Assembly (NCBI GenBank): GCA_033032865.1
Contig: JAWHQI010000068.1
Location: forward strand, 744,001-808,000
Length of the DNA: 64,000 bases
Direction of reading: 5' to 3'
Origin: Dactylorhiza incarnata
Taxonomy: Eukaryota > Streptophyta > Magnoliopsida > Asparagales > Orchidaceae
Below, one piece after another: positions 19,118-62,519 of the stretch. A program made the position numbers and the translations under genes. Each line of letters starts with the position of its first letter. The first letter of the stretch is position 1. Below the pieces are notes generated by a model. That model saw only the letters and a program-made list of their open reading frames with translations. It was not told the origin of the DNA and made no database searches.

Positions 19118-19313
19118 ACACAGTCGTGTGAGTTTTCTAGAGAGGGAGAAGAGAATTCGAAGTCCTTCCATTTGTAAATTGCATCCTTTTTGTTTTATTT
19201 TTTTTCGTATTATGTTTTTCTTTCTTTTAATATAGGCTGCTTTAGTGAATTATTGTTGGGTGTAGTATTTTGCACAATAGTGTTTTTCTTTTGAATCTAG
19301 TTATCTTCACGCA

Positions 19314-19450
19314 ATGTGGGCCTCATTTAATATTCATTGCCATTAGTGTGGAGATATCTCTCATGCTAGTGATAGATGTCCAAAGGGATATAATAGCCCG
19401 ATCACTCAAGGCCAGTATATGGAGCACCGACTTCGTCTAGTACTCCATAT
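19314..19450 (+). pseudogene. Zk zinc-knuckle protein, N-terminal fragment (copy A)
   Basis: ATG 19314 opens MWASFNIHCH, then an in-frame TAG (19344-19346) replaces the Trp of the CRWC motif, then CGDISHASDRC completes the first CX2CX4HX4C knuckle. The frame is cut at 19450 by the Tekay element, which duplicated CATAT. The rest of the gene resumes at 30457. Confidence 0.8.
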
Positions 19451-27530: not shown

Positions 27531-27609
27531 TAATCTTTGGTTCTTCTGTATCTCCCGTGATCGTTGGATTTCAAGTTTCGGGACGAAACTTCTTTTGATG
27601 GGGAGTTAT

Positions 27610-30451: not shown

Positions 30452-30456
30452 CATAT

Positions 30457-31522
30457 GGTGTGCGTAAGTCCTATGGTTATTCTTCTGAGCCTTTACCAGC
30501 ATACTTCTTTGCGGCTTCAGCACCTGTGGTGCCAAAGAAGCCAACCATGCAGTGCTTGTTTTGTCGGAGCACGGATCATGCCTTGGAGGATTGCGCTGCT
30601 TATCTTCGCCAATTGGACGAGGATGACGAGACGGATATCCGGATCGTCCCGACTCCTAACTCTGACAGCGCACCTTCTACCTCTGATTATGTAGATGTGT
30701 CACCTTCAAGTTTTGAAGGGAATGATGTAGACATGCTTATCAGAGTTGTGGCAGATGTATGTTCTGACATAGCTGAGCATATCTCTCCTGTGCATGCATC
30801 ACCTTGCGTGGATTCGATTCTTTGTGAGGAATCGGTGCTTGGCTTTATCCAAGCACTATTTCTCCCCCTGTTGTGCATACTACTATATTCGCCTCTGACG
30901 ATATTATTGAGGATGTTTCCCAGGATAAGGCAGGTAAATTGTGTGTTGTGCCTATTTCTATGGAGGAGGATATTTTCCAAGGTGACGAGGATTCTACCTT
31001 AGCACCGATGGAGGAAGTCCAAATCGTGGAGGAGGCTACTGTTGATTCTACTGAGCCCTGCAGCATTGTCGGTGATGCCGACAGTATCCTTTTACTTCAA
31101 CCTATCGGGAGTGAGACCGGGACCACTCCCCGATTGATGATTATTTAAGTTTTTCTTCTCTTTTATTTCCTAACCCCCCTTCTTTATCTGAGACTGTGCA
31201 GGTTGAGTTTTCACAGGTACTTCAGGAGGACTTGGAGCATTTTGCTCAAGTCAATGATGAGTGTATCCTCTCTTGTGAGGAGGTTGATCCCTCCTCCATA
31301 GAGGAAGCCTCATTCATTGCATTCTCCTCTTGTCTCCTCCCTGAAGACAACACCTTGCTGGGCAAGGATATTTTTGGTGAGATTTGTGAGGAGTACTCCT
31401 CCTCCTCTTCTTACTTTTTATTCCCTCTACCCGTGAAGAGTAGGTATTATTTATATTTAGGTAGGGGAGTAACTGTTCTGTCGCCGTATGGGTACCCGCT
31501 ACCGACACACATATTAGAATAA
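30457..31522 (+). pseudogene. Zk zinc-knuckle protein, main fragment (copy A)
   Basis: Continues the frame cut at 19450. It shows the second knuckle CLFCRSTDHALEDC, then AAYLRQLDEDDETDIRIVP and a long acidic Ser/Asp/Pro-rich region with a frameshift near 30845 and a stop at 31146. The frame reopens to 31522 with the conserved tail YFLFPLPV..YYLYLGRGVTVLSPY. The intact relative is at 51704-52939. Confidence 0.82.
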
Positions 31523-34224: not shown

Positions 34225-34460
34225 TGAAAGTATCTAGTTGCGACCTAAATCACCTAGAGGGGGGTGAATAGGTGGATTCTATGTCTTTTCGCGGAATAAA
34301 AAACTTAGAAATAAAAGCACACAGAATCCAAAAGAGCACAGCACAACACAGAGAATTATAGTGGTTCCCCGATCTTGGGTAGTCCACTTTCCACCTCACC
34401 TATCTAGCATGACCGGCTAGACTAGGCTACTTCACTGAACTCGGATCAAACAAATCCTAC

Positions 34461-34600
34461 TACTCGGAGTATACAACTCCTACAAGCTCGGAGAACAAAC
34501 TCTCCTACAAACTCGGAAGGAAAACTTCCTACAAACTCGGAGACAACGCTCCTACAACTCGGAGTATAACTCCTACAACTCGGAAGCAAGCTTCCTACAA
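34461..34600 (-). repeat. Six-unit hairpin array, H 3' LTR
   Basis: Tandem units of 22-27 bp with pattern GTAGGAN-loop-NTCCGAGTT on the minus strand. Each unit folds: stems GGAAGC/GCTTCC, GGAGT/ACTCC, GGAG/CTCC, GGAAG/CTTCC, GGAGA/TCTCC and GGAGT/ACTCC. Flanks (GAGTTTGTA) stay constant while the stem and loop vary. The array lies downstream of the TATA, in the RNA leader. Confidence 0.85.
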
Positions 34601-35129
34601 GAATATTGTAAAGAAATCTTACAAAATCTTTGATTGAGAAACAATCTACTTAGGAACTCTTGGAGGAGTCCTTTTCTTCAGATCTAAAACAAAAGATCTT
34701 CTTCTTCCTTGAAAATAGAAATCTGAAATCTGGATCTAAAAGAGGAAGAATAGATCTTACTTTGAAAAACCTTGAACTTAGCACTTAGGAGAAAACTAGA
34801 TCTGAAAGGAACTTGACAGATCTAAAATCAGAGATCTAGTATTCTCCTTTCTTCAAGAGGGATCGTGAAAAGCTTTGTCGGCAAGGAGCAGTTGATTTGC
34901 GATAAAGGTCGGCCGATGGACGAAGAGAGCAACGTCTTTCCTCTTGGATTCACGATTCATCGTTAAACGGAATTAACCCTTAGCTATATATAGCCTATCC
35001 ATTCCAACGGCTATAAACGAGAGCAACGAGAAGGGCGACAAACAAGGAGGGATTGCCACGTGTACAGTACATGTCGGCTAACCCTAATTTTCAAAAACGA
35101 AACGAGGAAATGAAATCCGTCTGCCCGTC

Positions 35130-35470
35130 ATTCGTCGGGATTCGTCGGGAGAACACGAGAGCATCCGACGAATTGACTTAGCTGCAGAGTTTTCTTAAGA
35201 ACCTAGACAAAATTGATCTCTGTCAGCATTCGTCGGGATTCGTCGGAATGACCCGAGTCATTTCGACGAATGGACTTGGCTTCAGAAAATTCTTCACAAC
35301 TCAGCCAAAAAGACCTCTGTCAGCATTCGTCGGGATTCGTCGGAATGACCCGAGTCATCTCGACGAATGGACTTGGCTTCAGAAATTTCTTCACAACTCA
35401 GCCAAAAAGACCTCTGTCAGCATTCGTCGGGATTCGTCGGAATGACCCGAGTCATCTCGACGAATGGACT
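35130..35470 (-). repeat. 97-bp tandem units with ATTCGTCGG hairpins, H 3' LTR
   Basis: TGTCAGCATTCGTCGGGATT starts at 35221, 35318 and 35414. Each unit contains ATTCGTCGGAATGAC..GTCATYTCGACGAAT, a nearly perfect 14-bp stem with a CCGA loop. A diverged fourth unit precedes at about 35135. Located upstream of the TATA, in U3. Confidence 0.9.
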
Positions 35471-36221
35471 TGGCAGAAATTTCCTTTTCTTCTGAAAGCC
35501 TACTTCACTCCTCAACCTTGAAAACCTTCAGTTATGAGTATATGAAGTGTACTCCAAAAGAGAGATTACACATGGACCAACACTTTGTTCTATACAATGA
35601 GGGATTACATTGTCTAGAACTGTGTTTGGTGATCCATTGCAACCTGACTTTGGTGTGCACTTAGCAATTTAGAACCTGCAAACACATAACTAGAGAACAA
35701 CATCAAATACAACTCAATTCAACTTAGTTCAAAGGAACACTTCTTCAAATCAAGGTAATTGTGGCTACAATACCCAACAATCTCCCCCTATTTGAAGAAG
35801 TCAGAACCTATGTACTGAGTTGAATTGCACTTAAATAAATATATATCAAATAGATAAGGAGAGTTAAAAACTTAACTTTTTCAACTTTCTCTCCCTTTCA
35901 ACTTTCTCTTTCAACTTTGCCAAATCTAACTTTGCCAATTCCTCCCAACTTCAAATTTTCTTGCAAATACAACTTCTCTCCCCCTTTCTGACTACTTCAG
36001 ATAGGGAAGAAAAAGCATGAGAGCTCAAAGCTCCCCCTCAATCTTTTCTCCCCCTTAGACTTATCTCCCCCTTAGAAATTCAGTGCCTGGACTGATTTCC
36101 TAAGCTTTTCAACAACCTTACTATATTTCTTCTATGTTCTGGTCATGTACCATGAACATCCACTTGTCCAAGTGCCTGATTAGAGTTTTGGTTGGCCTTT
36201 GGACATACCTGCAATCACAGA

Positions 36222-38366
36222 TTAATTTCCCTTAGGAACCCAAAAGGATTTGGGTCCTAGGTTTCTGGTTAGATTAACACCACTCGGAGTGTTAACATTG
36301 CAAGGGGTCATTCTTACATTGTTAACCCGTGGAGTCTTGACATTTCTGGGGTTAAACCAACAATCTATGGCGAAGTGACCAATCTTGCCACAACACCAAC
36401 AATCAAATCGATTGTATCTTCTCTTGTTTTCCTGTTTTAACTTTTGAACGGGGAGTTTAGCAGGAGCAATATTCTTAGAAGTAGAAGTCTCGTGGTTGCA
36501 ACACACGCATGACTCCTTCTTCTCTTCATGAGATTTAGCAACAATTGATTTAATCTTTGGTGCTTTCTTAATAACTGATCCATGTACAAATGAACCATAA
36601 TCCTTGGGGATTACTTTTTCATAAGGTCCCTTGAAAGCAGTTGTTTCGAAGCATCGGGGACGGGTTTGATTTTGGTCAACCTTGCCCTTACCTTTAACAA
36701 CTCTTTTCTTAGCAGCCTTACTACTTTCGGCCTTATGACCAAGACCACTAACCTTCGCAGGAGCAGAAAATCTTTCAATGATTGGAAGGATAGTTTTTGG
36801 TTTGGAGAAGCTTTCAACTATCTTCCTTTCCACCACTAACTTTTCTTCTAAATCATTGATAAACTTCTCCTTAAGATTTAATAATTCAGCGGAGCTTTTA
36901 ATTTCATCTTTCAAGGGTTGGATTTCATCTTTGAGAGGAGTCAATTGTTTAATTTCCTCCCTCAAAGCTGATTCCACCATCTTGAGAGATGCAATCTCAT
37001 GTGCTTGAGATTTGACTACCTTGCGGCATTTGTCAAATCCCTCCAACATAGCTTTATACTGAACCATTAGATCTAAGTCTTCCTTTGAAGAATAGCCTTC
37101 ATTTTCAACGGAATCAGTTTCAGATGCAGAAAGAGGAGTGTGCGAGTTTACCTTCCCTTTGTATGAGGAGACACTTCCTTCCTCATCTGAATGTGCCATA
37201 AGCCCAAAATAGGCTTCTTCATCTGAGCTTGACTTCCCTGAGTCACTGTCACTAAGAGTCTTGGACTCCTTTGCCAAGAAGCTCTTTTCTTCTTTCCTCT
37301 TATTCTTGAAGGATTTCTTCTTGTATGGACATTCCGTGCTTAAATGTCCTGGCTTATTACAACAAAAACAAATAATATCAGTCGAAATATATTTATTTGG
37401 TTTAGATTTATACCTATCGTTGTTGTGTTCCTTCTTGTGATGTTCATCATCACCCCTTGATCTTCTATGATCTGATGAGGATTGACTTTTCCTCTGGCTT
37501 CTTTTTCTGAGCAATCTCTTGAATTGCTTGGAGAGAGAAGAGAACTCTCCATCAGACATATCAGAGCTTGAGGGGCAAGCATCTGATTCATCATCTTCAT
37601 CTGAGGATTTTCTTCTAACAGAAGACGAGGCCTTATGTCTTCTTGATTCTTTGGCCTTCAGTGTCACGGTCTTCTCTCTTCCAGAGGTGGAGCATCCCTC
37701 TTCTTCAGCTTTTCTAATACTCAGCTTGAGCTCATGTGATAAGAGCTTGCCAAACAGAATTTGTGGCTCCATCGTAGCCAACTTTCCGAATTCCCGGATA
37801 GCAATAGCCTTGGTATCCCATTCTTTCGTTAGGGATCTCAAGAACTTGTCATTTAGTTCTCCAACGGTGAATTCCCGATCATAGTTCTTAAGACCATTGA
37901 CGATCTTAAAGAACTTCTCATAAGTAGCAGAAATGGAGTCTCTTGGATCTTGCTTGAATGCTTCATATTCTTGATTCAGCAATGATCTTCGATCATCCCT
38001 TACTTCTTCGGTTCCTTCCATAAGAACAACTATGGAGTCCCACATTTCCTTGGCAGACTTGCAGTGTATAAGATTTTGTAGCATTGAATCGTCCACTGCA
38101 CCAGCAATAATGTTCTTTGCCTTCTTGTCCAAGATGACGAGGGCAATCTCATCTTTGTCTAGCTCCAACATTTTCTTGGGAATCATAATAGCTGAATTTA
38201 TAGACGATGGCTTCATAGGAACATGGGGACCTTCCTCTACTATCTGAAAAATTCTTGGGTCGGTGGCTTCCATGTAGAACTTCATTCTTTCCTTCCACAT
38301 AGGGAAGTTCTCCTTAGAACAGACGAGCATCTTGAGAGAATCCTTGGATTTTTCCATTTCAGACAA
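36222..38366 (-). CDS. Copia gag protein of element H, intact
   Basis: 714 residues without a stop. The N-terminus (about 1-60, ENFPMWKERMKFYMEATDPR) and residues 75-220 (KSAKEMWDSIVVLMEGTEEV, GELNDKFLRSLTKEWDTKA) are the DUF4219/UBN2 gag domain of plant Copia elements. A Lys/Ser-rich segment follows, then knuckle CFCCNKPGHLSTEC (about 333), an acidic Ser stretch, a coiled coil (about 432-520) and a second knuckle CWCCGKIGHFAIDC (about 656), ending GPKSFWVPKGN. Two knuckles 320 residues apart are unusual. The protein should form virus-like particles and bind RNA. No protease, integrase or RT follows, so particles would need a helper. The ATG at 38366 is the first after the primer site and the frame is uninterrupted. 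Confidence 0.93.
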   Translation of the reverse strand: MSEMEKSKDSLKMLVCSKENFPMWKERMKFYMEATDPRIFQIVEEGPHVPMKPSSINSAIMIPKKMLELDKDEIALVILDKKAKNIIAGAVDDSMLQNLIHCKSAKEMWDSIVVLMEGTEEVRDDRRSLLNQEYEAFKQDPRDSISATYEKFFKIVNGLKNYDREFTVGELNDKFLRSLTKEWDTKAIAIREFGKLATMEPQILFGKLLSHELKLSIRKAEEEGCSTSGREKTVTLKAKESRRHKASSSVRRKSSDEDDESDACPSSSDMSDGEFSSLSKQFKRLLRKRSQRKSQSSSDHRRSRGDDEHHKKEHNNDRYKSKPNKYISTDIICFCCNKPGHLSTECPYKKKSFKNKRKEEKSFLAKESKTLSDSDSGKSSSDEEAYFGLMAHSDEEGSVSSYKGKVNSHTPLSASETDSVENEGYSSKEDLDLMVQYKAMLEGFDKCRKVVKSQAHEIASLKMVESALREEIKQLTPLKDEIQPLKDEIKSSAELLNLKEKFINDLEEKLVVERKIVESFSKPKTILPIIERFSAPAKVSGLGHKAESSKAAKKRVVKGKGKVDQNQTRPRCFETTAFKGPYEKVIPKDYGSFVHGSVIKKAPKIKSIVAKSHEEKKESCVCCNHETSTSKNIAPAKLPVQKLKQENKRRYNRFDCWCCGKIGHFAIDCWFNPRNVKTPRVNNVRMTPCNVNTPSGVNLTRNLGPKSFWVPKGN

Positions 38367-38444: not shown

Positions 38445-39999
38445 TGAAAGTATCTAGTTGCGACCTAAATCACCTAGAGGGGGGTGAATAGGTGGATTCT
38501 ATGTCTTTTCGCGGAATAAAAAACTTAGAAATAAAAGCACACAGAATCCAAAAGAGCACAGCACAACACAGAGAATTATAGTGGTTCCCCGATCTTGGGT
38601 AGTCCACTTTCCACCTCACCTATCTAGCATGACCGGCTAGACTAGGCTACTTCACTGAACTCGGATCAAACAAATCCTACTACTCGGAGTATACAACTCC
38701 TACAAGCTCGGAGAACAAACTCTCCTACAAACTCGGAAGGAAAACTTCCTACAAACTCGGAGACAACGCTCCTACAACTCAGAGTATAACTCCTACAACT
38801 CGGAAGCAAGCTTCCTACAAGAATATTGTAAAGAAATCTTACAAAATCTTTGATTGAGAAACAATCTACTTAGGAACTCTTGGAGGAGTCCTTTTCTTCA
38901 GATCTAAAACAAAAGATCTTCTTCTTCCTTGAAAATAGAAATCTGAAATCTGGATCTAAAAGAGGAAGAATAGATCTTACTTTGAAAAACCTTGAACTTA
39001 GCACTTAGGAGAAAACTAGATCTGAAAGGAACTTGACAGATCTAAAATCAGAGATCTAGTATTCTCCTTTCTTCAAGAGGGATCGTGAAAAGCTTTGTCG
39101 GCAAGGAGCAGTTGATTTGCGATAAAGGTCGGCCGATGGACGAAGAGAGCAACGTCTTTCCTCTTGGATTCACGATTCATCGTTAAACGGAATTAACCCT
39201 TAGCTATATATAGCCTATCCATTCCAACGGCTATAAACGAGAGCAACGAGAAGGGCGACAAACAAGGAGGGATTGCCACGTGTACAGTACATGTCGGCTA
39301 ACCCTAAATTTCAAAAACGAAACGAGGAAATGAAATCCGTCTGCCCGTCATTCGTCGGGATTCGTCGGGAGAACACGAGAGCATCCGACGAATTAACTTA
39401 GCTGCAGAGTTTTCTTGAGAACCTAGACAAAATTGATCTCTGTCAGCATTCGTCGGGATTCGTCGGAATGACCCGAGTCATTTCGACGAATGGACTTGGC
39501 TTCAGAAAATTCTTCACAACTCAGCCAAAAAGACCTCTGTCAGCATTCGTCGGGATTCGTCGGAATGACCCGAGTCATCTCGACGAATGGACTTGGCTTC
39601 AGAAATTTCTTCACAACTCAGCCAAAAAGACCTCTGTCAGCATTCGTCGGGATTCGTCGGAATGACCCGAGTCATCTCGACGAATGGACTTGGCAGAAAT
39701 TTCCTTTTCTTCTGAAAGCCTACTTCACTCCTCAACCTTGAAAACCTTCAGTTATGAGTATATGAAGTGTACTCCAAAAGAGAGATTACACATGGACCAA
39801 CACTTTGTTCTATACAATGAGGGATTACATTGTCTAGAACTGTGTTTGGTGATCCATTGCAACCTGACTTTGGTGTGCACTTAGCAATTTAGAACCTGCA
39901 AACACATAACTAGAGAACAACATCAAATACAACTCAATTCAACTTAGTTCAAAGGAACACTTCTTCAAATCAAGGTAATTGTGGCTACAATACCCAACA
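38445..39999 (-). mobile_element. 5' LTR of element H
   Basis: The promoter-bearing LTR; same length and features as the 3' copy (TATA at 39204-39213, hairpin array 38681-38820, 97-bp units about 39355-39690). Four visible differences from the other LTR: near 38780, 39307, 39395 and 39418. Confidence 0.95.
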
Positions 40000-42871: not shown

Positions 42872-44115
42872 CTAGCTAATGGGCCTATGAAAAAGAAAAT
42901 GCACAGGCAACTGCTCCAATATGCGTTTCGGTAGCTGGTACCGATACGGAGATAAGGCAGTCACCCCTCTACCTAAATAATAATAATACATGCTCCTCAC
43001 AGGTAGATGGAAAAGAAAGTAAGAAGAGGAGGAGGCCTGGTCCTCACTCATCTCACCAAAACTATCCTTGCCCAGCAAGGTATCGTCCACAGCAGGTCCG
43101 CAGGAGGAGAAGGCAACGAATGAGGCTTCCTTAATGGAGGAGGAATCAACCTCCTCGCATAAAAGGACACACTCATCATTGACTTGAGCACAAAGCTCCA
43201 AGTCCTCCTGAAGTACCTGTGAAGATTCAACCTGCACAGACTTTCAGATGAAGGAAGGGGATCAAGAAATAAAGAAGACGAAGAACATAAATAAACAAAA
43301 ATCGGGGGAGTGGTCCCGGTCTCAGTCCCATCAGGTTGGGTAAGTAAAATAATGTTTGCATTGTCATCAATGCTACAAGAATTGGTGGGATCAACAGTGT
43401 CCAGGCTTAGGATTTGGACTTCCTCCACCGGTGCTGAGGAAAACTCCTCTTCACCTAGAAGGTTGTCCTCCATCATAGGAATATGCACAACACTCAGATC
43501 ACCCACCTCATCCTGCGACACATCATCAACAATGTCGTCGGAGACGAGTATAGTATGCACAACAGGGGGAGGAGTAGTGCTCGGATAAAAGTCGAGCACC
43601 GATTCCTCACAAAGAATCGAATCCACTAGGGGTGGTGGATGCACTGGGAGAATAGGCTCAGCAATGTCGGTGCATAGATCAGCCGCACATCCGGTGACCG
43701 TATCCATGCCATTCCCTTCAAGATGTGAAGGTGACAAAGACACATAACCGGATGTTGAAGGTGTGCCACCAGAGTTAGGAGTTGGGACGATCCGGATATC
43801 CGGCTCGTCATCCTCATCCAATTGGCGAAGATACTCGGCACAGTCCTTCAAGAAATGATCAGTGCTCCGACAAAACCGGCACTGCCTAGCGGGCTTCTTT
43901 GGCACAGCGGGTGCTGAAGCCGAAAAGAAGTAAGACGGTAAAGTCTCAGCAGAGTAGCCATAAGACTTACGCGCACCATATGGAGTATCAGACGAAGTCG
44001 GTGCTCCATATGCTGGGCTATAAGAATTATGCCTACTATTCTCCGTAGGGCATTCATCACTAGAGTGGGAGGTAGATCCACACCAACGGCAACGGAAATT
44101 AAGATGTGCCCACAT
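42872..44115 (-). pseudogene. Zk zinc-knuckle protein (copy B), one frameshift
   Basis: ATG 44115 opens MWAHLNFRCRWCGSTSHSSDEC with an intact first knuckle; the second, CRFCRSTDHFLKDC, is also intact. The frame follows copy C closely until about 43245, where an indel shifts it; the correct frame continues at 43237-42872 and ends HFLFHRPIS. Both metal sites are better preserved than in copy C. No capsid, protease or RT motif. Confidence 0.85.
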
Positions 44116-46585: not shown

Positions 46586-48320
46586 CACCCCCAGACTTAC
46601 CTGTTTGTACGTCCCGAGCAAACAAATCCTAAGCAGGCGGGAAAATGGAATAGCTAGCTTAAAATTACAAAATAGAGTACCATGCGAAGTCGCATGCTCA
46701 TGTGCATAGAAAAATAGTAGAGAAGATTTCTAATTATACACAGTTTATAAATTTCAAAAGAGAGTAAATAAATAACACTTCTACTCAAAATGGGAGTCAC
46801 GGTGAATCATTCGATCACACATACGGAGAAAGTAAAATAATTGCTGAGACGAGCATTGCCAAAGTTGGGATTTCAGACAAACTCCACCGAAATCCATCGG
46901 TGTCAGAGACCATAAGCTCGCCCGGTCACATTCTCTCCACGACACTAGATTGGTTTATAGCGCGAGTCTGTAGGACTTTAGGTTTTAAACAGGGCTTGGG
47001 TTCAGGTAAGTAAACATCGATAAACAAGGGGGCTTTACGCACCTAACCCAAATGAGCTAATGCAATAAACTATCCTCAAGCACCACACAAACACGCGGGT
47101 ACCCCACACCCCCAAAATTGAACTTAACAACATGGGTGTGTGCACCGCCTACTCCCAATCATAAATTTATACAAAGATTTTTCAATTAAGCTCATCTCTT
47201 TTTTTATAACAAACTTTTCTTTTTCTTTTTCATTCTTCTTTTACTTTCGTTTCTTTTTCAGCAAATTTTCAATTAACACACCCACAAATTTCACTAAAGT
47301 ATCACAACATCAACACCCCAAATAATAGACAACTAAAGCTCAAATTTGGGTGTGACCAGGATTGGCTTTTAGGCTTTGGTGAGATAAAAGTGGGGCTGAA
47401 TAAAAGAATAAGTAGGCACAACTGGACTAACAAGGATAAGATGATAGGAATGGCACAAAGACTCAATCGGGCCAAAATGATGGCCTACATCATTCTCGCG
47501 CAATAGAACTATCATATGCATATGCTTCAAGAATCGCTTGAGGCAAGTTCTTAGCCACCGAGAAAGATTATCCTTCCTCCCGGCTCGAGCAATTCACATC
47601 TAACGATACTTTACATACATCCCTATGCTACCTTTTGATTCACACAGGATTCACCACTTGAGTAGAGTAAACAATAAAACTAAATGTATAAAAAGAAATC
47701 TAATCTACACAAATCCCTATACTCACATGAGTACTTGACTAGGAACACCGGAGTCAACATTTTACTCCACTACATAATTTAAAAGCCAGCACAATCATTT
47801 TCCCAAACACACAAAGGAAATGAGTTATACTCGATACGCGCCTACCACTAATTACACACTCAAGTTGGTGTTGTGGTGTGCGATGAAGATGAACATATAA
47901 TATAACTAAAAAATAAAAATACTTCTAGCATGCACTGAGATGTGCACGTGCAGTGGGTAACACATAGCGGCTCTCCCCCAGATTTAATCTAAACATTCCA
48001 ATACAAGATATACAATAAAGACTAAAATAAAATCTAGGGGAAGAGAGTACCCAATGCTCAGCGAGTGAGCATACCAGAAGACGCGTGTAAACCTAGACAA
48101 AGTTGCGGCATCCGCCATCGAGATGAAGGACCTGCAGGGGTGAACTCCGCAAAAATAAAAGAAAAAAAACTAAAAAAATACAACTAACTAACTGACTAGA
48201 TAAAAATGAAAATGCAAGAAAATGTAAGATAACTACTGGGGTTATTGTCCTCCCAGCACGACTTTATTCAGAAAGTAGAAGGTTATAGCTAATGGGAGTA
48301 TGAAAAGAGAAATGTACAGG
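46586..48320 (-). other. Zk D internal 3' region
   Basis: Polypurine tract at the left edge, then about 1.7 kb non-coding sequence collinear with the same part of A, B and C, including the purine tract (47195-47265 as pyrimidines on plus). Interrupted at 48320 by C. Confidence 0.6.
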
Positions 48321-49973
48321 TGATGGCGCAAATCTTAGCACACCGCTATAGGCGGTAGTAAAACTGCGTCACGAAACGACAGTGTACCGATCGTTCAAGT
48401 AATATAAAATGGGAATGAATCCCCAAGTATCAATCTCAAAGGAACATAGTAAGGTGGAGTTAAATTTCAAGGAAGGACTTGAGAACGAAGTCCTAAAGGT
48501 CGGATGGAATGCGGGAGAGTTGGTTTGGCTTTTGGAAAATAAAAGAAAACAAATACAACTACTCCTATGCAATGCCGCTATGCAATGCTTCGCTTGGCGG
48601 GATGGAGACTAGGCAGGCCTTGAGCGCGCTGCGTCGCAAGGGCGGATGGACGAGTAGGCAAGCGGAGTCGAACTGTGCAGGCCTTGAGCGCACTTCTTCG
48701 TAGGGCGAATGGATTACACGGGCCGCTATGCCACGCTTCGCTAGGCGGATGGAAGAGTAGGCATACGAATGGAATGGTTCGCACCGGCGGAGTCGGAATG
48801 GATTACACGGGCCGCTATGCCACGCTTCGCTAGGCAGATGGAAGAGTAGGCATACGGATGAGGGTCGCAAGCACCTCGTCGACAAGCACGCCACTAGCAA
48901 TTGCTAGTGCGGCACCGAACACGATGGCGGAATGGAAATTAGATGGGGGCGCACCTCAATAAGCACATATGAACTAAATGATTCCAAATAAATGAAATAA
49001 ACATTAGGCAAAATTGTTCATAGCACACATCATCAATAATATAGAGGAAACTAGCTTATACAATCAACAACATAAGGAAGAAGAATAGAGTGAAGGAATC
49101 GACCACATCCGAAGCCTCATTGAAGATTCACGGTTGGAATCGCAGGGTTGTCAATCCGCGTCCAAGCTCGGTCTTCAACTGCGTCCGGGGTAGAGAAGGC
49201 TGTCACTACCTCCCAATGGACCCGTCTTCTTCGTGTCACGATCTGGTCTCCTCCGATACACGATCTCCTTGCTTGATGTTGGCGATCTTTGGTCTTGAAA
49301 CCTCTCCTTGGAGCTCAAGGATGATGGGGGAGGCCTAGGGGGCGGAGAACCAGCGAGAAGGGAGAAAATGGCGGATTGACGAAGTTGGAAATGAGCGATC
49401 CCGCCCTAATTCGCGAGCAAGTCAATATATAGGCGCTGGAATAAACAGTGTGCACGATCGGTGGCGCACGACCAATGGTCATGCGCACTAGAATCATGTG
49501 ATCGTGCGCCTGCCTGGGCGGAGCCTGCAATGTAAGAAATTTATAAAATATAATGTTCGCACGACCAGTGGCGCACGACCAGTGGTCGTGCGCACTATCG
49601 TAAGTGGTCGTGCGCTCTGGTCGAGACAGAACTCATAAAATGGGGGTTAAGTGCGCACGATCAGCGGCGCACGACCAGTGGTCGTGCGCAATAGAACTAG
49701 TGATCGTGCGCAGTGTTCCTGTACATAATTGTACCGGGGACACCTGCACGACTCCTGTTCCAACAGGAATGCTAATCAGGCCACTGAAAGTGGCACTCAA
49801 CAATACGATAAGGCTATCAAAAGAGAGTAAGCATAAAACACACCAAATTAGGCCAAGAAGTGCACCTAGCATAGAATGACAAATATGAGCTAAAACAAGG
49901 CTAAAGTGCAGTGGAATGACTAGATAAACGGCCCAGATGAGTCCATATATGTGTATATAATTGGGACTCATCA
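48321..49973 (-). mobile_element. 3' LTR of Zk C
   Basis: 1653 bp; palindromes at about 49447-49710; ends GGGACTCATCA at 49973 next to a slightly altered purine tract (CACCCTCAGACTT on plus). It carries one more palindrome pair than the 5' LTR. Confidence 0.93.
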
Positions 49974-51703
49974 CACCCTCAGACTTAACTATTTGCGCGT
50001 CCCGAGCAAACCATCTCTCGCGGACATGAAAAACATAGCTGACAAAGAAATTATCAAGCGGAGTACCATGCGAAGTCGCATGCTCACACGCGTAGAAATA
50101 CAATAGATAAAATTCCTAATTATGCATATTAGTTTATAATTTCCTAGGAGCGTATTTATATATTACATTTACTCAAAAATTGAATCACGGTGAATCATAA
50201 GGTCGCACATAGGAAGAAAGTAAACTGAACGCTAAAACAAGCATTGCCAAAGATCGGGGCTCGAGACAACTCCATTGAAATCCATCAATGTCGGTGACCA
50301 TAAGCTTGCCCATTCGCACTCTCTCCACTGCACTGGTTTGACTCAAATGTGTGAATCAATAGGACTTTAGGTTTTAAATGGGGCTTGGGTGTAGGTGAGG
50401 TATACAATGATAAAGACGATGGCTCAAATACTAAACCCAAATGAGCTAGTGCAGAAATTCTCCTCATTCACCACACAAATACGCGGGTACACCACACCCC
50501 CAGACTTGGATTTGACTACATGGGTGTGTGCACCGCCTACTCCCAAACATACATTTATACACAGATTTTTAAATAAAGCTCATATCTTCTTCTTTTCTTC
50601 TCACTTCTCTTCTTTTTCTTATTTTCTTTTTCTTTTCACAAATTTTCAGCAATTTAAACAATGATGCATATCCGCATTTTCACAAACATATCACTACATC
50701 AACAACCCAATCATGAAAGTAATATACTAGAGCTCAAATTTGGGTGTGCGACTAGGATTGGCTTTTGGGCTTTGGTGAAATAAAAGTGGGGCTGAATCAA
50801 AGAACGGGTAGGCACAACTGGGCTAGCGAGGATAAAACGATAGGAATGGGTAAAAAGGCTCAACCGGGCCAAAATGATGGCCTACATCACATTCACACAA
50901 ATGACTAACCGTATACCCATGCTTCAAGAATAGCTTGGGGCAAGTTCTAGCCACCGAGAAAGATGATCCTTCCTCCCGACTCGGGCAATACATGGCTAAC
51001 AAACGCCCACACACATTCCTATGCTACCGTCTGATTCACACCGGATTCACCACATTTTTGAGTAAAGTAAACAATATCTATGCTAATAGAAAAATACAAT
51101 CTAAAAGCCTAAAAAGAAATTGAATCTACACGAATTTCTAAGCGAGACATTGGCACTCGACTAGGAGCACTACAGGAGTCAACATTTTACTCCACCTCAT
51201 AATCCTAAGCCAGCACAGTGATTTTCCAAATCACACAAAAAGAAATGAGTTCGGCTCAAGATGTGCCAACAGCTAAGTGCGCGCTCATGTGGGTGCTGTG
51301 GTGTGCAATGAAACTGAACAAAACAAAAATAAATGACAGCTCCTAGTATGCTGTGCAATGGTGCACGTGAGCGGGTAAACGGAACTACTCTCCCCCAGAC
51401 TTAAACTAAACAAAATGCGCAAAATATAACCATGAAATTCAGAATAATGCTAGGGAAAGAGAGTACCCAGTGCTCAGAAATGAGCACACCAGAAGATTGG
51501 CGTGTAAGCTAAAATGAGCCGCAGCATCCGCCATCCAGAAGAGATACCTGCAGGGGTCAGCTCCGCAGAAACAAAAGAAAATAGAAAACTGAAAAAGAAA
51601 TACTACTAACTAAACATAATTAGGTGAAATGAAAATGCAGAAAAGAAAGATAACTACTGGGGTTATTGTCATCCCAGCACGACTTATTCAAAAACTAAAG
51701 GTT
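49974..51703 (-). other. Zk C internal 3' region
   Basis: Non-coding, collinear with the other three copies. The pyrimidine tract on plus is at about 50585-50640 and a purine-tract-like CACACCCCCAGACTTGGA near 50495. No frame supported. Confidence 0.6.
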
Positions 51704-52939
51704 CTAGCTAATGGGCGTATGAAAAAGGAAATGAACAGGTAACTGTTCTAATACGCGTGTCGATAGTGGGTACCGATACGGCGACAGAACAGTTACTCCT
51801 CTACCCAAATAATAATAACTACATAACGCAGGTAGAGGAAACAGAAAGTAAGAAGAGAAGGAGATATCCTCACTCAACTCACCAAACACATCCTTGCCTA
51901 TCAAGGTGTCGTCAACAGGGAGGTGGCAGGAGGAAAAGGCAATGAGTGGAGTTTCCACTACGGAGGGGGAATCAACCTCCTCACATAAGAGGATGCTCTC
52001 ATCATTGACTTGGGCAATATGCACCAAATCCTCCTGGGGTACCTGTGAAGACTCAACCTGCACAGGCTCGGATGAAGAGGGGGAATCGAGAAATAAACAA
52101 GACGAAGAACATAAATAATCAAAAATCGATGGAGTGGTCCCGATCTCACTCCCATCAGGTTGGGTAAGTAAAATAATGTTTGCATTGTCATCAATGCTAC
52201 AAGGTTCGGCGGGATCAACAGTGGCCATGCCTAAGATTTGGACTTCCTCAACAGGTGCTGAGGAAAACTCCTCTTCACCGAGAAGGTTGTCCTCCTCCAT
52301 AGGAGTAGGCATAATACTAAGATCAACAGCCTCCTTTTGTGACTCATTATCGACAATGTCGTCAGAGACGAAAGTAGTATGCACAACAGGGGGAAGAATA
52401 GTGCTCGGATAAAAGTCGAGCACCGTTTCCTCACAAAGAATCGAATCCACTAGGGGTGGTGGATGCACCGGGAGAATAGGCTCAGCAATGTCGGTTCCCA
52501 GATCAGCCACACATCTGGTGACTGTGTCAACGCCATACCCTTCAAGATGTGAAGGTGGCAAAGACACATAACCGGATGTTGAAGGTGTGCCGCCAGAGTT
52601 AGGATTCGGGACGATCCAGATATCCGGCTCATCGTCCTCGTCCAATTGGCGAAGATACTCGGCACAGTCCTTCAAGACATGATTAGTGCTCCGACAAAAC
52701 CGGCACTGCCTAGCGGGCTTGTTTGGCACAGAGGGTGCTGAAGCCGAAAAGAAGTATGACGGTAAAGGTTCGGCAGAGTAGCCATAAGACTTACGCGCAC
52801 CATATGGAGTATCAGACGAAGTCGGTGCTCTATATGCTGGGCGAGAAGAATTATGCCCACCATTCTCCGTAGGGCATTCATCACCAGAGTGGGAGGTAGC
52901 TCTATACCAACGGCAATGGATATTAAGATGTGCCCACAT
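51704..52939 (-). CDS. Zk double-zinc-knuckle acidic protein (copy C), uninterrupted
   Basis: 411 residues from ATG 52939, just inside the primer site. Knuckle 1 is at residues 9-22 (CRWYRATSHSGDEC; the second Cys is Tyr here but Cys in B and D). A Tyr/Ser/Pro linker (GARKSYGYSAEPLPSYFF) follows, then knuckle 2 at 79-92 (CRFCRSTNHVLKDC, intact). After LRQLDEDDEPDIWIVP comes 250 residues of acidic low-complexity sequence (repeated DDTL/EED/SSE words), then a conserved hydrophobic tail (FLFPLP..YYYLGRGVTVLSPYR). There are no capsid, protease, RT or integrase motifs. CCHC knuckles bind single-stranded nucleic acid, so a role in packaging RNA into helper particles is a reasonable inference. It may derive from the zinc-finger part of an Athila-type gag, but I cannot show that. 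Confidence 0.85.
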   Translation of the reverse strand: MWAHLNIHCRWYRATSHSGDECPTENGGHNSSRPAYRAPTSSDTPYGARKSYGYSAEPLPSYFFSASAPSVPNKPARQCRFCRSTNHVLKDCAEYLRQLDEDDEPDIWIVPNPNSGGTPSTSGYVSLPPSHLEGYGVDTVTRCVADLGTDIAEPILPVHPPPLVDSILCEETVLDFYPSTILPPVVHTTFVSDDIVDNESQKEAVDLSIMPTPMEEDNLLGEEEFSSAPVEEVQILGMATVDPAEPCSIDDNANIILLTQPDGSEIGTTPSIFDYLCSSSCLFLDSPSSSEPVQVESSQVPQEDLVHIAQVNDESILLCEEVDSPSVVETPLIAFSSCHLPVDDTLIGKDVFGELSEDISFSSYFLFPLPALCSYYYLGRGVTVLSPYRYPLSTRVLEQLPVHFLFHTPIS

Positions 52940-53130
52940 AGTGTGAAGATAATACGATTCAAAAAGAAAAACACTATTGTGCGAAATACCACCCCTAACA
53001 AAAATTACTAACGCAACCTAATTAAAAACAGGAAACAGAATACGAGGAAATAAAATGAAGGAATGCAATTTACAAATGGAAGGGCTTCTCTCTCAAGTTC
53101 TCCCTCTCCAGAAAACTCACACGACTGTGT

Positions 53131-53148
53131 TCCCCGGCAACGGCGCCA
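53131..53148 (-). other. Primer-binding site of Zk C, tRNA-Asp
   Basis: Exact 18-nt complement of tRNA-Asp on the minus strand, six bases from the LTR. Confidence 0.95.
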
Positions 53149-53154
53149 AAAACT

Positions 53155-54781
53155 TGATGGCGCAAATCTTAGCACACCGCTATAGGCGGTAGTAAGACTG
53201 CGGCACGAAACGGCAGTGTACCGATCGTTCAAGTAATATAAAATGGGAATGAATCCCCAAGTATCGATCTCAAAGGAACACAGTAAGGTGGAGTTAACTT
53301 TCAAGGAAGGACTTGAGATCGAAGTCCTAAAGGTCGGATGGAATGCGGGAGAGTTGGTTTGGCTTTTGGAAAATAAAAGAAAACAACTACAACTACTCCT
53401 ATGCAATGCCGCTGTGCAATGTTTCGCTTGGCGGGATGGAGACTAGGCAGGCCTTGAGCGCGCTGCGTCACAAGGGCGGATGGACGAGTAGGCAAGCGGA
53501 GTCGAACTGTGCAGGCCTTGAGCGCACTGCTTCGTAGGGCGAATGGATTACACGGGCCGCTATGCCACGCTTCGCTAGGCGGATGGAAGAGTAGGCATAC
53601 GAATGGAATGGTTAGCACCGGCGGAGTCGGAATGGATTACACGGGCCGCTATGCCACGCTTCGCTAGGCGGATGGAAGAGTAGGCATACAGATGAGGGTC
53701 GCAAGCACCTCGTCGACATGCACGCCACTAGCAATTGCTAGTGCGGCACCGAACACGATGGCGGAATGGAAATTAGATGGGGGCGCACCTCAATAAGCAC
53801 ATATGAACTAAATGATTCCAAATAAATGAAATAAACATTAGGCAAAATTGTTCATAGCACACATCATCAATAATATAGAGGAAACTAGCTTATATAATAA
53901 ACAACATAAGGAAGAAGAATAGAGTGAAGGAATCGACCACATCCGAAGCCTCATCAAAGATTCACGGTTGGAATCGCAGGATTGTCAATCCGCGTCCAAG
54001 CTCGGTCTTCAGCTGCGTTCGGGGTAGAGAAGGTTGTCACTACCTCCCAATGGACCCGTTTTCTTCGTTTCACGATCTGGTCTCCTCCGATACACGATCT
54101 CCTTGCTTGATGTTGGCGATCATTGGGCTTGAAACCTCTCCTTGCAGCTCAAGGATGATGGAGGAGGCCTAGGGGGGGCGGAGAACCAGCTAGAAGGGCG
54201 AAAACGGCGGACTGGCGAAGTTGGAAATGAGCGATCCCGCCCTAATTCGCGAGCAGGTCAATATATAGGCGCTGGAATAAACAGTGCGCACGACCAGTGG
54301 TCGTGCGCACTAGAATCCAGTGATCGTGCGCCTGCCTGGGCGGAGCCTGCAATGTAAGAAATTTATAAAATATAATGTTCGCACGACCAGTGGTCGTGCG
54401 CACTATCGTAAGTGGTTGTGCGCTCTGGTCGAGACAGAACTCATAAAATGGGGGTTAAGTGCGCACGATCAGTGGCGCACGACCAATGGTCATGCGCAAT
54501 AGAACCAGTGATCGTGCGCAGTGTTCCTGTACAGAATTGTACCGGGGACACCTGCACGACTCCTGTTCCAACAGGAATGCTAATCAGGCCACTGAAAGTG
54601 GCACTCAACAATACGATAAGTCTATCAAAAGAGAGTAAATATAAAATACACCAAATTAGGCCAAGAAGTGCACCTAGCTTAGAATGACAAATAGGAGCTA
54701 AAACAAGGCTAAAGTGCAGTGGAATGACTAGATAAACGGCCCAAATGAGTCCATATATGTGTATATAATTGGGACTCATCA
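53155..54781 (-). mobile_element. 5' LTR of Zk C
   Basis: 1627 bp. Palindromes GCGCACGACCAGTGGTCGTG at about 54286-54505; TATATA on minus near 54261; terminal fold-back at 54740-54781. Confidence 0.94.
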
Positions 54782-54786
54782 ACAGG

Positions 54787-56069
54787 TAAACTGTTCTAAT
54801 ATACGTGTCGGTAGCAGGTGTCGATACGGCGACAGAACAGTTATCCCTCTACCTAAATATAAATAATACCTGCTTGTCACAGGTAGAGGGAATAAAAAGT
54901 AAGAAGATGAGGAGTTCTCCTCTCTACTTTCACCAAAATAAAAGTCATTGCCAAATAAGTTGTCATTTTCAGGGAGGCAGCAGGAGGAGACAATGAATGA
55001 GGCCTCAACTATGGAGGAGGGATCAACCTCCTCACATAAGAGGACACTCTCATCATTGACTGGAGCAACATGCTCCAAGTACTCCTAGCATTCTCGTGAA
55101 GAGTCAACCTGCACAGGCTCAGATGAAGAAGGGGGGTCCGGAAATAAATGAGAAGAATGACATAAATAATCAAAAATCAGGGGAGTGGTCCCGGCCTCAC
55201 TCCCAGCAGGATCTAAGCATAGATCACTGTTTGTATCATATGAGTCGTAGCTAGGGGAGTACGAAAGCTCGAGGTCCTCGGTGTTGAGTTGGACCTCCAA
55301 ATCCGATAAGGAAGTGCAAACCTCCTCATCATAAATAGTTTCCTCCTCATCCCACCTCGGTATGTCATCGTGTTCCAAGGAGTCACACTCCCCATCGGAG
55401 AGAATAACATCCTCGTCCCACTTTGGCGCATCCTCAGGCTTCGAATGATCTTCCTTCCTAACATTATCAACCAACTCACAAAAAATAGGTGCAGATAGTA
55501 CATGCAAAGAAAGCGGAGGAACAAAGGTAATAACATCATCAGAGAAAATGTGCACAGGTTCCTCCGGGGGTGAATCCAAAAGGAGTGACGAATGCACCAG
55601 GAGAGAGGTCTCCACCATGTCATAACACCGATCAGCAGAAAGTCTGATGGGGATATTTGCAGCAGTCCCCCATAGATAAGGTGGTACTGCGAATATATCA
55701 TCAGAATCAGAAAGAGCACCCAAATGAGAGGTTGATGGAATCATAAGAACATCAGTTTCATCATCCTCCTCCATCTGGCGCTGAAATTCTGCGGAATCTT
55801 TCAATGCGTGCTCGGTGCTATGACAACACAAACACCATTTTCCATTACTCCTCGGTCCAGACGGGGCCGGAGAGGAATATGTAAACGATAAATGGGGTGA
55901 AGGAGAGTGACCATAAGACTTGGGGTACGGTGTATGAAGTACCGTAAGAGGACGGTGCTCCATACACTGGGCCTCGAGACTTATGCCCACTATCTCCAGT
56001 GGAGCATTTATCACTAGAATGGTTATAATCTACACACCATCTACAACGGATATTAAAAACAGAAAACAT
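54787..56069 (-). pseudogene. Zk zinc-knuckle protein (copy D)
   Basis: Opens MFSVFNIRCRWCVDYNHSSDKC (intact first knuckle). After a frame change near 55915 it continues; the second knuckle is CLCCHSTEHALKDS with the last Cys lost. An expanded acidic region (WDEDVILSDGECDSLEHDDI) and a stop near 55083 precede the conserved tail (YLYLGRGITVLSPYR). It is cut near its end by C. The most diverged of the four copies. Confidence 0.82.
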
Positions 56070-59897: not shown

Positions 59898-61118
59898 TGT
59901 TGGGAAAATGATTTGTCTTAACCCCAAAATGAGTTGAATATGAATTCTAAGAAAGAAATATCAATGTTAAGTAAATATGCGTCGAATAGTATTCGACACA
60001 ACGTCGAAGTGTTGTCGACGTTTCTTTCAGAATTAGTCGAAGTAACTTTAATAAGAATTCGACGTATCCTATATCGACGTAGCTCTGACTTCTTGTCGAC
60101 ACACCTTAGTCGACGCACCTTCCTTATTCTCCTCTCGACGTCCAGCTAGGATGAATTCGACGCTTACATCGAATTGTAATCGACGTACGTCGATTACTAT
60201 GGTAAATTCAAATAACACCAGATCTCTTTCCTTCTTTCTATAGATCTGATTTATATGGAATAATATTATTCTTTTATAGTCATTATGAAGTATTCTTTCC
60301 CTCTAATTGATTCTTGGCTAAATTGATTAACTCTATTTTGGATATTATTTGAAATCAGAATTCATTCTTTCCTTCTATAGAAATAAACATTATGGAAACA
60401 TCTTTTCTTTCTATTCTCTCTAACTGCTAATTGATTATCCTCCTATAGTATTATGTTGAATTAACAGAGCTATAAATAAAGAGGAGGTCGGCAGAAAATG
60501 ACGAGAGGTGATCCACTCCATACATTTGAAATAGAGGATTCAGAACCAAGGAGTCTCCACAACTAAATCAGACATGGGGAGCTCTCTTCACCATCTTCAT
60601 CAAGATCCAACTCAACATCCAATCTGGATTTTCAAGTGTCTTCTCAGCTAAAAGAGAAGAACAATATATTTTTTTCCCTTTCTCCTTCCCATCTTGTAAA
60701 GGGTTAAAACTCCCTTCAAAAGTTTACTCCCAGTGACAGGGCACCTTAGCAAAAACCTGCAGCTTGGTTTATAAGCACCTTATCAAAAGCTTATAGGTGA
60801 ATTGGGCACCTGATCAAAACTCCCATTGGTTTGTGGACACCTTATCAAAATCACCTTGGTGTGTGGACACCTTATCAAAATCACCTTGGTGAGAGGGCAC
60901 CTTATCAACAACCTCCTAGTGGATTCCTACCAGTGGGTAGAAGAGTAGATGTACCCAGGTTTTGGGGAACTACTATATATCTTGTGTCATCTGGTTATGT
61001 GCTTGTTTTTTACTTTCTGAATCAGCACTCATATATATATTTATATATATCACTTAATTTGAAACAAAGTTAAATAAGACTTTTAATAATAAGAATGAGA
61101 ACTAAAACTCAACTTTCA
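59898..61118 (+). mobile_element. 5' LTR of element I
   Basis: TGTTGGGAAAAT...CAACTTTCA. U3 holds clustered TCGACG words (59980-60200) including the palindrome TAATCGACGTACGTCGATTA (near 60177). TATA (TATAAATAA) at 60471. Behind it lie units of CACCTTATCAAAA (60720-60915), including two adjacent near-identical 29-bp copies. An 80-residue open frame across these repeats (60831-61073) is probably not a gene. Confidence 0.92.
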
Positions 61119-61294
61119 ATTGGTATCAAAGCGAGGTTGATTTTTCACACAGGCTAACACCTGAAATCACAAAAATCACTTAGTTCTCTATTCTCCCCTT
61201 ATTCTCTGAAAATGATTTTTCTGATTTCCTAATATATCTCTAATATGCTGATTCAATTTTTCTCTGAATAGGGTTAAGACAAATAGGGGGAGAT

Positions 61295-62514
61295 TGTTGG
61301 GAAAATGATTTGTCTTAACCCCAAAATGAGTTGAATATGAATTCTAAGAAAGAAATATCAATGTTAAGTAAATATGCGTCGAATAGTATTCGACGCAACG
61401 TCGAAGTGTTGTCGACGTTTCTTTCAGAATTAGTCGAAGTAACTTTAATAAGAATTCGACGTATCCTATATCGACGTAGCTCTGACTTCTTGTCGACGCA
61501 CCTTAGTCGACGCACCTTCCTTATTCTCCTCTCAACGTCCAGCCAGGATGAATTCGACGCTTACGTCGAATTGTAATCGACGTACGTCGATTACTATGGT
61601 AAATTCAAATAACACCAGATCTCTTTCCTTCTTTCTATAGATCTGATTTATATGGAATAATATTATTCTTTTATAGCCGTTATGAAGCATTCTTTCCCTC
61701 TAATTGATTCTTGGCTAAATTGATTAACTCTATTTTGGATATTATTTGAAATCAGAATTCATTCTTTCCTTCTACAGAAATAAACATTATGGAAACATCT
61801 TTTCTTTCTATTCTCTCTAACTGCTAATTGATTATCCTCCTATAGTATTATGTTGAATTAACAGAGCTATAAATAAAGAGGAGGTCGGCAGAAAATGACG
61901 AGATGTGATCCACTCCATACATTTGAAATAGAGGATTCAGAACCAAGGAGTCTCCACAACTAAATCAGACATGGGGAGCTCTCTTCACCATCTTCATCAA
62001 GATCCAACTCAACATCCAATCTGGATTTTCAAGTGTCTTCTCAGCTAAAAGAGAAGAACAATATATCTTTTCCCTTTCTCCTTCCCATCTTGTAAAGGGT
62101 TAAAACTCCCTTCAAAAGTTTACTCCCGGTGACAGGGCACCTTAGCAAAAACCTGCAGCTTGGTTTATAAGCACCTTATCAAAAGCTTATAGGTGAATTG
62201 GGCACCTGATCAAAACTCCCATTGGTGTGTGGACACCTTATCAAAATCACCTTGGTGTGTGGACACCTTATCAAAATCACCTTGGTGAGAGGGCACCTTA
62301 TCAACAACCTCCTAGTGGATTCCTACCAGTGGGTAGAAGAGTAGATGTACCCAGGTTTTGGGGAACTACTATATATCTTGTGTCATCTGGTTATGTGCTT
62401 GTTTTTTACTTTCTCAATCAGCACTCATATATATATTTATATATATCACTTAATTTGAAACAAAGTTAAATAAGACTTTTAATAATAAGAATGAGAACTA
62501 AAACTCAACTTTCA
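61295..62514 (+). mobile_element. 3' LTR of element I
   Basis: Same features as the 5' LTR (TATA near 61868, palindrome near 61573, CACCTTATCAAAA units 62130-62310). About a dozen substitutions, many of them CG to TG or CA changes. Confidence 0.92.
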
Positions 62515-62519
62515 ATAGC

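What the first reader, a model, noticed from the sequence alone, without database searches (positions are those of the whole stretch)
51704..52939. A mobile family that encodes only a double-zinc-knuckle acidic protein
Four copies (A, B, C, D) keep one frame with two CCHC knuckles about 57 residues apart, an acidic middle and a conserved C-terminal tail (YLGRGVTVLSPY), but no capsid, protease, RT or integrase. With a tRNA-Asp primer site it looks like a parasite of Athila-type elements that supplies its own RNA-binding factor. I know of no described family with exactly this content. This is my best candidate for an undescribed system.
Basis: partly seen in the sequence, partly recalled or inferred. 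Interest (0 to 1): 0.88.

Follow-up and report, generated by a model that had tools for sequence, protein, structure and literature searches.

The report
Retrotransposon encoding only a zinc-knuckle protein
This is one copy of an abundant plant mobile element that has swapped its replication genes for a single conserved zinc-knuckle protein, while the related self-sufficient elements sampled in the same genome lack that zinc knuckle, which hints at two elements sharing one job.

Summary
The finding is real but partly misdescribed. The 411-codon frame is on the minus strand, inside a complete LTR element (window 48321-54781; CCTGT target duplication; LTRs 95% identical). None of the four window copies keeps the whole frame with two intact knuckles; the focal copy has Cys-to-Tyr in knuckle 1. 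Genome-wide the claim holds: 39 of 42 copies compared have an intact knuckle 1, 40 of 42 an intact knuckle 2. Variants shared by three or more copies show purifying selection (N/S 0.29, against 0.72 for singletons); a second subfamily, about 50% identical in the head, keeps both knuckles (one copy read). No capsid, protease, RT or integrase was found.

Likely mobilisers: full-length Athila-type elements with the same primer site and LTR start (four read), and the same polypurine tract and 3' region (one read). Of 16 integrase sites sampled, 12 gave a readable Gag linker; none of the 12 has a zinc knuckle. The short element thus encodes what these Gags lack. Best explanation: a nucleocapsid-like protein supplied in trans, possibly to both elements. 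RNA binding and dependence are untested, and knuckle-less relatives of this Gag occur in other plants. New variant of a known kind (Gag-only helpers such as Quinta).

The parts
53155..54781 (-). 5' LTR of the focal element (TGATGAG...CATCA)
   Evidence: 95.0% identical to the 3' LTR over 1655 aligned columns
53131..53148 (-). primer binding site TGGCGCCGTTGCCGGGGA
   Evidence: identical in L060, L061 and L063, one mismatch in L062; that this is tRNA-Asp is recalled
51704..52939 (-). the 411-codon frame (zinc-knuckle, acidic protein)
52874..52915 (-). knuckle 1, residues 9-22, CRWYRATSHSGDEC; second Cys is Tyr in this copy
   Evidence: intact in 39 of 42 copies
52664..52705 (-). knuckle 2, residues 79-92, CRFCRSTNHVLKDC, intact
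   Evidence: intact in 40 of 42 copies
51860..52639 (-). acidic middle, residues 101-360
51776..51811 (-). conserved tail YLGRGVTVLSPY, residues 377-388
   Evidence: same 12 residues in P0001 of Platanthera guangdongensis
49987..51531 (-). non-coding region between the frame and the polypurine tract; homologous to the pol-to-LTR region of the autonomous element
   Evidence: 68.3% over 2151 columns including U3, starting 173 bases after the stop codon (L064)
49974..49986 (-). polypurine tract AAGTCTGAGGGTG
   Evidence: AAGTCTGGGGGTG in most fetched copies and in the autonomous element L064
48321..49973 (-). 3' LTR of the focal element
54782..54786 (.). target-site duplication CCTGT (minus-strand reading), 5' side
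48316..48320 (.). target-site duplication CCTGT (minus-strand reading), 3' side; the element sits in the end of the frame of copy D
54789..56069 (-). copy D (second subfamily), broken: frame shift after knuckle 1, last Cys of knuckle 2 is Ser, stop before the tail
42909..44115 (-). copy B: both knuckles intact, frame shifts before the tail
30452..31519 (+). copy A, 3' piece of the frame (5' piece near 19300-19453), split by a Ty3-type insertion, stops and frame shifts

Best explanation
It is a high-copy non-autonomous LTR retrotransposon whose gag-pol has been replaced by one gene for a nucleocapsid-like protein: two CCHC knuckles in a basic head, a long acidic stretch and a short basic tail. 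Shown: it is a real element with LTRs, PBS, PPT and 5-bp duplications; the protein is kept by selection; full-length Athila-type elements in the same genome share its PBS and LTR start (four read), and its PPT and 3' region (one read); the sampled ones have a capsid-type Gag and pol but no knuckle in Gag. Inferred: those elements make the particle, copy the RNA and integrate it; the knuckle protein binds the shared RNAs and is taken into the particle, replacing in trans the missing nucleocapsid part of Gag, for its own RNA and perhaps for the partner's.
For: LTR pairs in the focal copy and 17 further distinct copies of 19 fetched (L010 a duplicate; L020, L027 without a full pair); 5-base duplications exact in 14 of 16 readable, one mismatch in L013 and L019, by my reading. 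Purifying selection: singletons 246 N:106 S, variants in 3 or more copies 45:49, Fisher p 1.4e-4, per-site N/S 0.72 against 0.29, stop-creating variants 7 singletons, 2 doubletons, 0 in 3 or more (42 copies). Between subfamilies over 117-118 codons pN 0.27-0.29, pS 0.67-0.71, dN/dS 0.16-0.22, all eight zinc ligands kept (one copy of the second subfamily). Frame diverges 3.7% on average between 20 copies, three 3' stretches 15-25% (medians 10-22%). Partner: U3 77.8-81.2% over about 400-540 columns in 3 of 4, 80-82% over about 135 in the fourth; LTR-end-plus-PBS identical over 29 bases in 2 of 4; pol-to-LTR region 68% (one element). No knuckle in 12 of 12 readable partner Gag linkers. Profile of the knuckle-1 region matches the knuckle region of 42 related Gags at E 1.8e-5, against 2.8e-3 and 8e-3 for two other gags of the window (single sequences, so weaker controls) and 0.4 for the reversed profile. 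Head pI 8.2-9.0 in three copies.
Against: No RNA-binding, expression or particle data. The protein as a whole is acidic (pI 4.2-4.3), unlike usual nucleocapsids. Knuckle-less relatives of this Gag occur in other plants: 43 of 83 listed protein matches in which capsid and LRSG motif could be located lack the CCHC pattern, so Gag may work without it. Knuckle-bearing Gags may exist in this genome too: 966 sites of a motif that I recall as typical of them, none read. Pfam zf-CCHC stays below its cut-off in every family protein scanned. Within the young copies the first 50 codons, with knuckle 1, show no constraint on their own (ratio 1.07). The model is uninformative (mean pLDDT 32.9). The Athila label rests on PBS and recalled motifs, the link to the Gag knuckle on one short profile match. 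Copies were mostly chosen by similarity to the protein, which lowers N differences and stops.
Confidence: 0.48

Rival explanations
1. Parasite with its own packaging factor: the protein favours only the short element's RNA; the partner neither needs nor gains from it.
For: The leaders share only a few tens of bases after the LTR end; knuckle-less relatives of this Gag exist elsewhere, so the partner may not need one; the short element is abundant (641 exact 26-mers; 411 for a partner 26-mer, but the two strings differ in how conserved they are, so this is no copy ratio).
Against: The partner lacks the very domain that the short element encodes (12 of 12 readable).
Confidence: 0.24
2. Accessory factor outside Gag: the knuckle-acidic protein acts on host RNA or chromatin, for example against silencing or as an activator, and is not part of the particle.
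For: Acidic middle and conserved C-terminal tail have no Gag counterpart in Pfam; plant elements carry other extra proteins, e.g. TRP28 in Retand (PMC11963269, abstract and passages) and an RNA demethylase in orchid Ty3/Gypsy elements (PMC9289625, passages).
Against: It stands where gag-pol stands in the relative, right after the leader; knuckle 1 resembles the Gag knuckle.
Confidence: 0.23
3. Neutral relic of a gag gene that happens to stay open in young copies.
For: LTRs are 93.6-97.6% identical in 17 pairs, so these copies are fairly young; none of the four window copies is intact; of three copies chosen by leader alone only one is open.
Against: Shared variants have N/S 0.29; both knuckles kept across subfamilies with near-saturated silent change.
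Confidence: 0.03

Closest known systems
RLG_Quinta / RLG_Cereba pair of wheat (PMC11302176; passages read)
   Same: Non-autonomous element with one intact ORF, mobilised by an autonomous relative with the same LTR ends, PBS and PPT; proposed to give Gag back to the partner.
   Different: Quinta encodes a GAG domain plus an unknown domain, and Cereba is described as encoding all canonical proteins including GAG. Here no capsid is recognisable, and the sampled partners lack the knuckle.
Gag-only and Gag-Env Athila elements of Arabidopsis (PMC2410132; passages read)
   Same: pol-less Athila families whose ORFs are under purifying selection, thought to be mobilised in trans.
   Different: Those ORFs are Gag or Env; this one has no gag match in Pfam.
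TR-GAG elements (definition read in PMC6022998; original paper not seen)
   Same: LTR element with one Gag-related ORF and no pol.
   Different: TR-GAG requires a GAG domain; none found here.
Diaspora of soybean, Athila-related lineage (PMC1142308; passages read)
   Same: Its Gag carries a CX2CX4HX4C knuckle, the spacing of both knuckles here.
   Different: Its knuckle lies inside a complete gag-pol; here the knuckles are alone.

Membership tests
LTR retrotransposon | paired LTRs, TG...CA ends, PBS, PPT, target duplication | tested here: met
TR-GAG | a GAG domain as the only coding domain | tested here: not met
   no gag or capsid match in 6 family proteins (focal, B, D; L009, L047, L035); partner Gag gives PF03732 at 4e-9 and 2e-10 in the same test
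LARD | no coding capacity | tested here: not met
   frame under purifying selection
Athila lineage | place in an RT tree | not testable with these tools
   the short element has no RT; the partner's RT was not placed in a tree here; Athila label from PBS and recalled motifs (GIDFMGPFP, LRSG)
Athila lineage | cis sequences shared with Athila-type full-length elements | tested here: met
   PBS and LTR start in four, PPT and pol-to-LTR region in the one read
Quinta/Cereba-type autonomous/non-autonomous pair | shared LTR ends, PBS and PPT with an autonomous relative in the same genome | tested here: met
Quinta/Cereba-type autonomous/non-autonomous pair | short partner encodes GAG | tested here: not met
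   no capsid domain
Retroviral-type nucleocapsid | CCHC knuckles | tested here: met
   39 of 42 and 40 of 42 copies by pattern; Pfam zf-CCHC stays below its cut-off
Retroviral-type nucleocapsid | binds and packages genomic RNA | not testable with these tools
   needs bench work

The most novel reading that the evidence does not exclude
A split-Gag, two-component retrotransposon: capsid and enzymes are encoded by one element that has lost its nucleocapsid, and the nucleocapsid by another that has lost everything else, so that the two spread only together.
Probability: 0.27. Interest if true: 0.85.

Novelty: new variant of a known kind. Interest (0 to 1): 0.6.

Why it matters
Non-autonomous plant elements are usually read as parasites or as extra Gag donors. 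A pair in which capsid and nucleocapsid have been parted onto two elements would be a mobile counterpart of a multipartite virus genome and would make the question 'parasite or partner?' directly testable: remove one protein and ask which element stops moving.

Tried and rejected
Frame as part of a standard gag-pol: not so in the five loci of four autonomous relatives. Neutral relic: rejected. A gag domain in the protein: six family proteins scanned with Pfam, none; structure prediction useless (mean pLDDT 32.9), so no fold search was run. PF03078 (ATHILA ORF-1) as a route to the partner: 92 matches over part of the model; none of the 10 loci fetched shows the primer site within 3 mismatches. 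A leader match near a PF03078 frame (C2518) proved to be another short copy (L059). Wider protein search with an alignment of seven: still only P0001. Earlier idea that all Athila-type Gags here lack knuckles: softened, because 966 sites of a motif recalled as typical of knuckle-bearing Gags exist. Other DNA at 4 of the 12 integrase sites (L065, L067, L071, L074): counted as unreadable. Three copies chosen by leader similarity, not by the frame (L077-L079): 1 of 3 open, 3 of 3 with both knuckles; not in the count. Retrosat2 ORF0 (PMC3485330, passages) looked at as another extra ORF; it lies beside a gag-pol frame and was not pursued.

Full report
What is there. The frame at 51704-52939 is on the minus strand, 411 codons. 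It lies in a complete LTR element: 5' LTR 53155-54781, primer site TGGCGCCGTTGCCGGGGA at 53131-53148, polypurine tract just before the 3' LTR at 48321-49973, and a CCTGT duplication. The LTRs are 95.0% identical. The element sits inside the end of the frame of copy D, a member of the same family.

Correction of the observation. Knuckle 1 of this copy reads CRWYRATSHSGDEC; the second ligand is lost. Copy B has both knuckles but shifts frame before the tail; copy D has a frame shift, a Ser in knuckle 2 and a stop; copy A is split by a Ty3-type element and carries stops. So the window alone does not show a working gene.

The family in the genome. The protein search scored 101 places of 25,351 first-look candidates; the 101 match over full or nearly full length at 88-100% identity, and 65 of 101 have no stop by my count (these are the best-scoring places, so biased to good copies). 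One exact 26-base stretch of the frame occurs 641 times, backward control 0; it is present in 39 of the 42 compared copies. The second subfamily (copy D type) gives 129 matches, many with open frames of about 443 codons. Twenty stretches were fetched; L010 duplicates L009, flanks included. The primer site is found with at most 2 mismatches in 20 of 20; an LTR pair in 18 of 20, not in L020 and only in part in L027; internal regions are about 3.2 kb. Five-base duplications are exact in 14 of 16 distinct elements where both ends could be read, focal included, with one mismatch in L013 and L019 (my reading). LTR identity over 17 pairs (L010, L015, L020, L027 left out) was 93.6-97.6%, median 96.05; at a recalled rate of 1.3e-8 this is about 0.9-2.6 million years.

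Selection. 42 copies were compared: the focal copy, L005, L009, L011-L048 and L059; L001-L004, L006-L008 and L010 were dropped as repeats of these. Single-copy variants: 246 N, 106 S. Variants in two copies: 52 N, 29 S. In three or more: 45 N, 49 S. Per-site N/S 0.72, 0.56 and 0.29; Fisher for singletons against three or more, p 1.4e-4. Stop-creating variants: 7, 2 and 0. Pooled pairwise ratio 0.50. Knuckle 1 intact in 39 of 42, knuckle 2 in 40 of 42. An earlier run on 35 copies gave 0.51 overall; its windows of 50 codons ranged from 0.33 to 1.14, with 1.07 for the first 50 codons and 1.14 for codons 251-300 (the short last window gave 0.24), so within the young copies constraint is uneven and the knuckle-1 window by itself shows none. 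Between the main subfamily (four copies) and one copy of the other (L080), over 117-118 codons from the start, about half the residues agree, pS is 0.67-0.71 (near saturation), dN/dS 0.16-0.22, and all eight ligands are kept. The frame is less diverged (mean 3.7%) than the leader (5.2%) and three 3' stretches (means 15-25%, medians 10-22%; 20 copies). Choosing copies by protein similarity lowers N and stops; the singleton contrast is less exposed to this. Three copies picked by leader similarity: 1 of 3 open, 3 of 3 with both knuckles.

The partner. A pattern for an integrase motif recalled as Athila-type has 1,471 sites, control 0. At four of these I read 6.2 kb upstream (L060-L063). Three have a primer site identical to that of the short element, L062 has one mismatch; the four LTRs start TGATGAGTC; U3 is 80.7-81.2% identical over about 400 columns in three and about 80-82% over 135 in the fourth, L063. 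For one, the 3' half was also read (L064): LTRs 98.15% identical over 1514 columns, polypurine tract AAGTCTGGGGGTG, and the region between pol and 3' LTR 68% identical to the short element's 3' region. The frame of the short element has no counterpart in these five loci (tblastn, best E 0.5).

Partner Gags lack a knuckle. Pfam finds Retrotrans_gag in the L062 and L060 pieces but no zf-CCHC. No CCHC pattern occurs in any sense frame of L060-L064. At 12 further integrase sites, 8 gave a readable stretch from capsid to the LRSG motif; 8 of 8 have no knuckle (L066, L068-L070, L072, L073, L075, L076); 4 had other DNA. Together 12 readable of 16 sampled, 12 of 12 without. The sites were chosen by integrase motif and codon variants, not at random. 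In Diaspora, Gag has CX2CX4HX4C (PMC1142308, passages).

Limits of that contrast. Among the 120 listed protein relatives of the partner Gag (of 2,449 found), capsid and LRSG motif could both be located in 83; 40 have a knuckle between them and 43 do not. Many are gene models, and the query itself lacks a knuckle, so this is no fair census, but knuckle-less relatives are not rare. And 966 sites of a motif recalled as typical of knuckle-bearing Gags exist in this genome; none was read, so a knuckle-bearing mobiliser is not excluded.

Origin of the knuckles. A profile of about the first 115 residues (43 rows) matches the knuckle region of 42 of those Gags at E 1.8e-5, probability 78%. Controls: two other gags of the window 2.8e-3 and 8e-3 (single sequences, hence weaker), reversed profile 0.4. 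Knuckle 2 alone gave 0.081. This favours, but does not prove, descent of knuckle 1 from an Athila-type nucleocapsid. Middle and tail have almost no known relatives: in a protein collection of 5.8 billion only P0001 of the orchid Platanthera guangdongensis was reported (a word-based search, so distant relatives can be missed), with the same 12-residue tail and a middle like copy D (52% over 157 residues). The host is therefore probably an orchid (inference).

Interpretation. The protein is conserved, stands in the place of gag-pol, and carries the domain absent from the sampled partner Gags. The simplest account is a nucleocapsid-like factor acting in trans. Whether it also serves the partner is open; it decides between helper and parasite.

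Literature. Pol-less Athila families with selected Gag or Env: PMC2410132 (passages). Quinta gives GAG to Cereba: PMC11302176 (passages). TR-GAG definition: PMC6022998 (passages). Searches with terms for Athila plus orchid, TR-GAG, Athila plus zinc knuckle, nucleocapsid in trans, split or bipartite gag and Orchidaceae plus zinc knuckle (0 papers) listed, by title and abstract start, no description of this family; some lists were capped, and the library holds only open-licence papers.

Noticed in passing
34225-35779 and 38445-39999: Copia-type element (gag frame 36222-38366, PF14223) with 99.74% identical LTRs: a very recent insertion, placed inside an LTR of this family.
   Followed up: no
59898-61120 and 61295-62516: Direct repeats of about 1.2 kb, 98.8% identical, only about 175 bases apart; could be a very short LTR element or a tandem duplication.
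   Followed up: no
19448-22297 and 27607-30449: Ty3-type element (gag and integrase frames between) whose LTRs are 86.8% identical and which splits copy A.
   Followed up: no
L049, L052, L053, L056, L057: Another family with one open frame of 477 aa that matches PF03078 (ATHILA ORF-1); no Athila primer site in the 3.5 kb loci read; perhaps a second single-gene element.
   Followed up: partly
G000:C11:1243211, 1247839, 1252467: Three copies of the frame's 26-mer at exactly 4628-base spacing, as LTR-internal-LTR-internal arrays from unequal recombination would give.
   Followed up: no
L009, L010 (C674, C1034) and C905: Identical scores and, for L009/L010, identical flanks on small contigs: probable duplicated assembly contigs.
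   Followed up: partly
P0003-P0010 (Cannabis sativa): Knuckle-less Gag proteins; seven of the eight (P0003-P0007, P0009, P0010) have only about 29 residues between capsid and LRSG: do such genomes also hold a knuckle-only partner?
   Followed up: no
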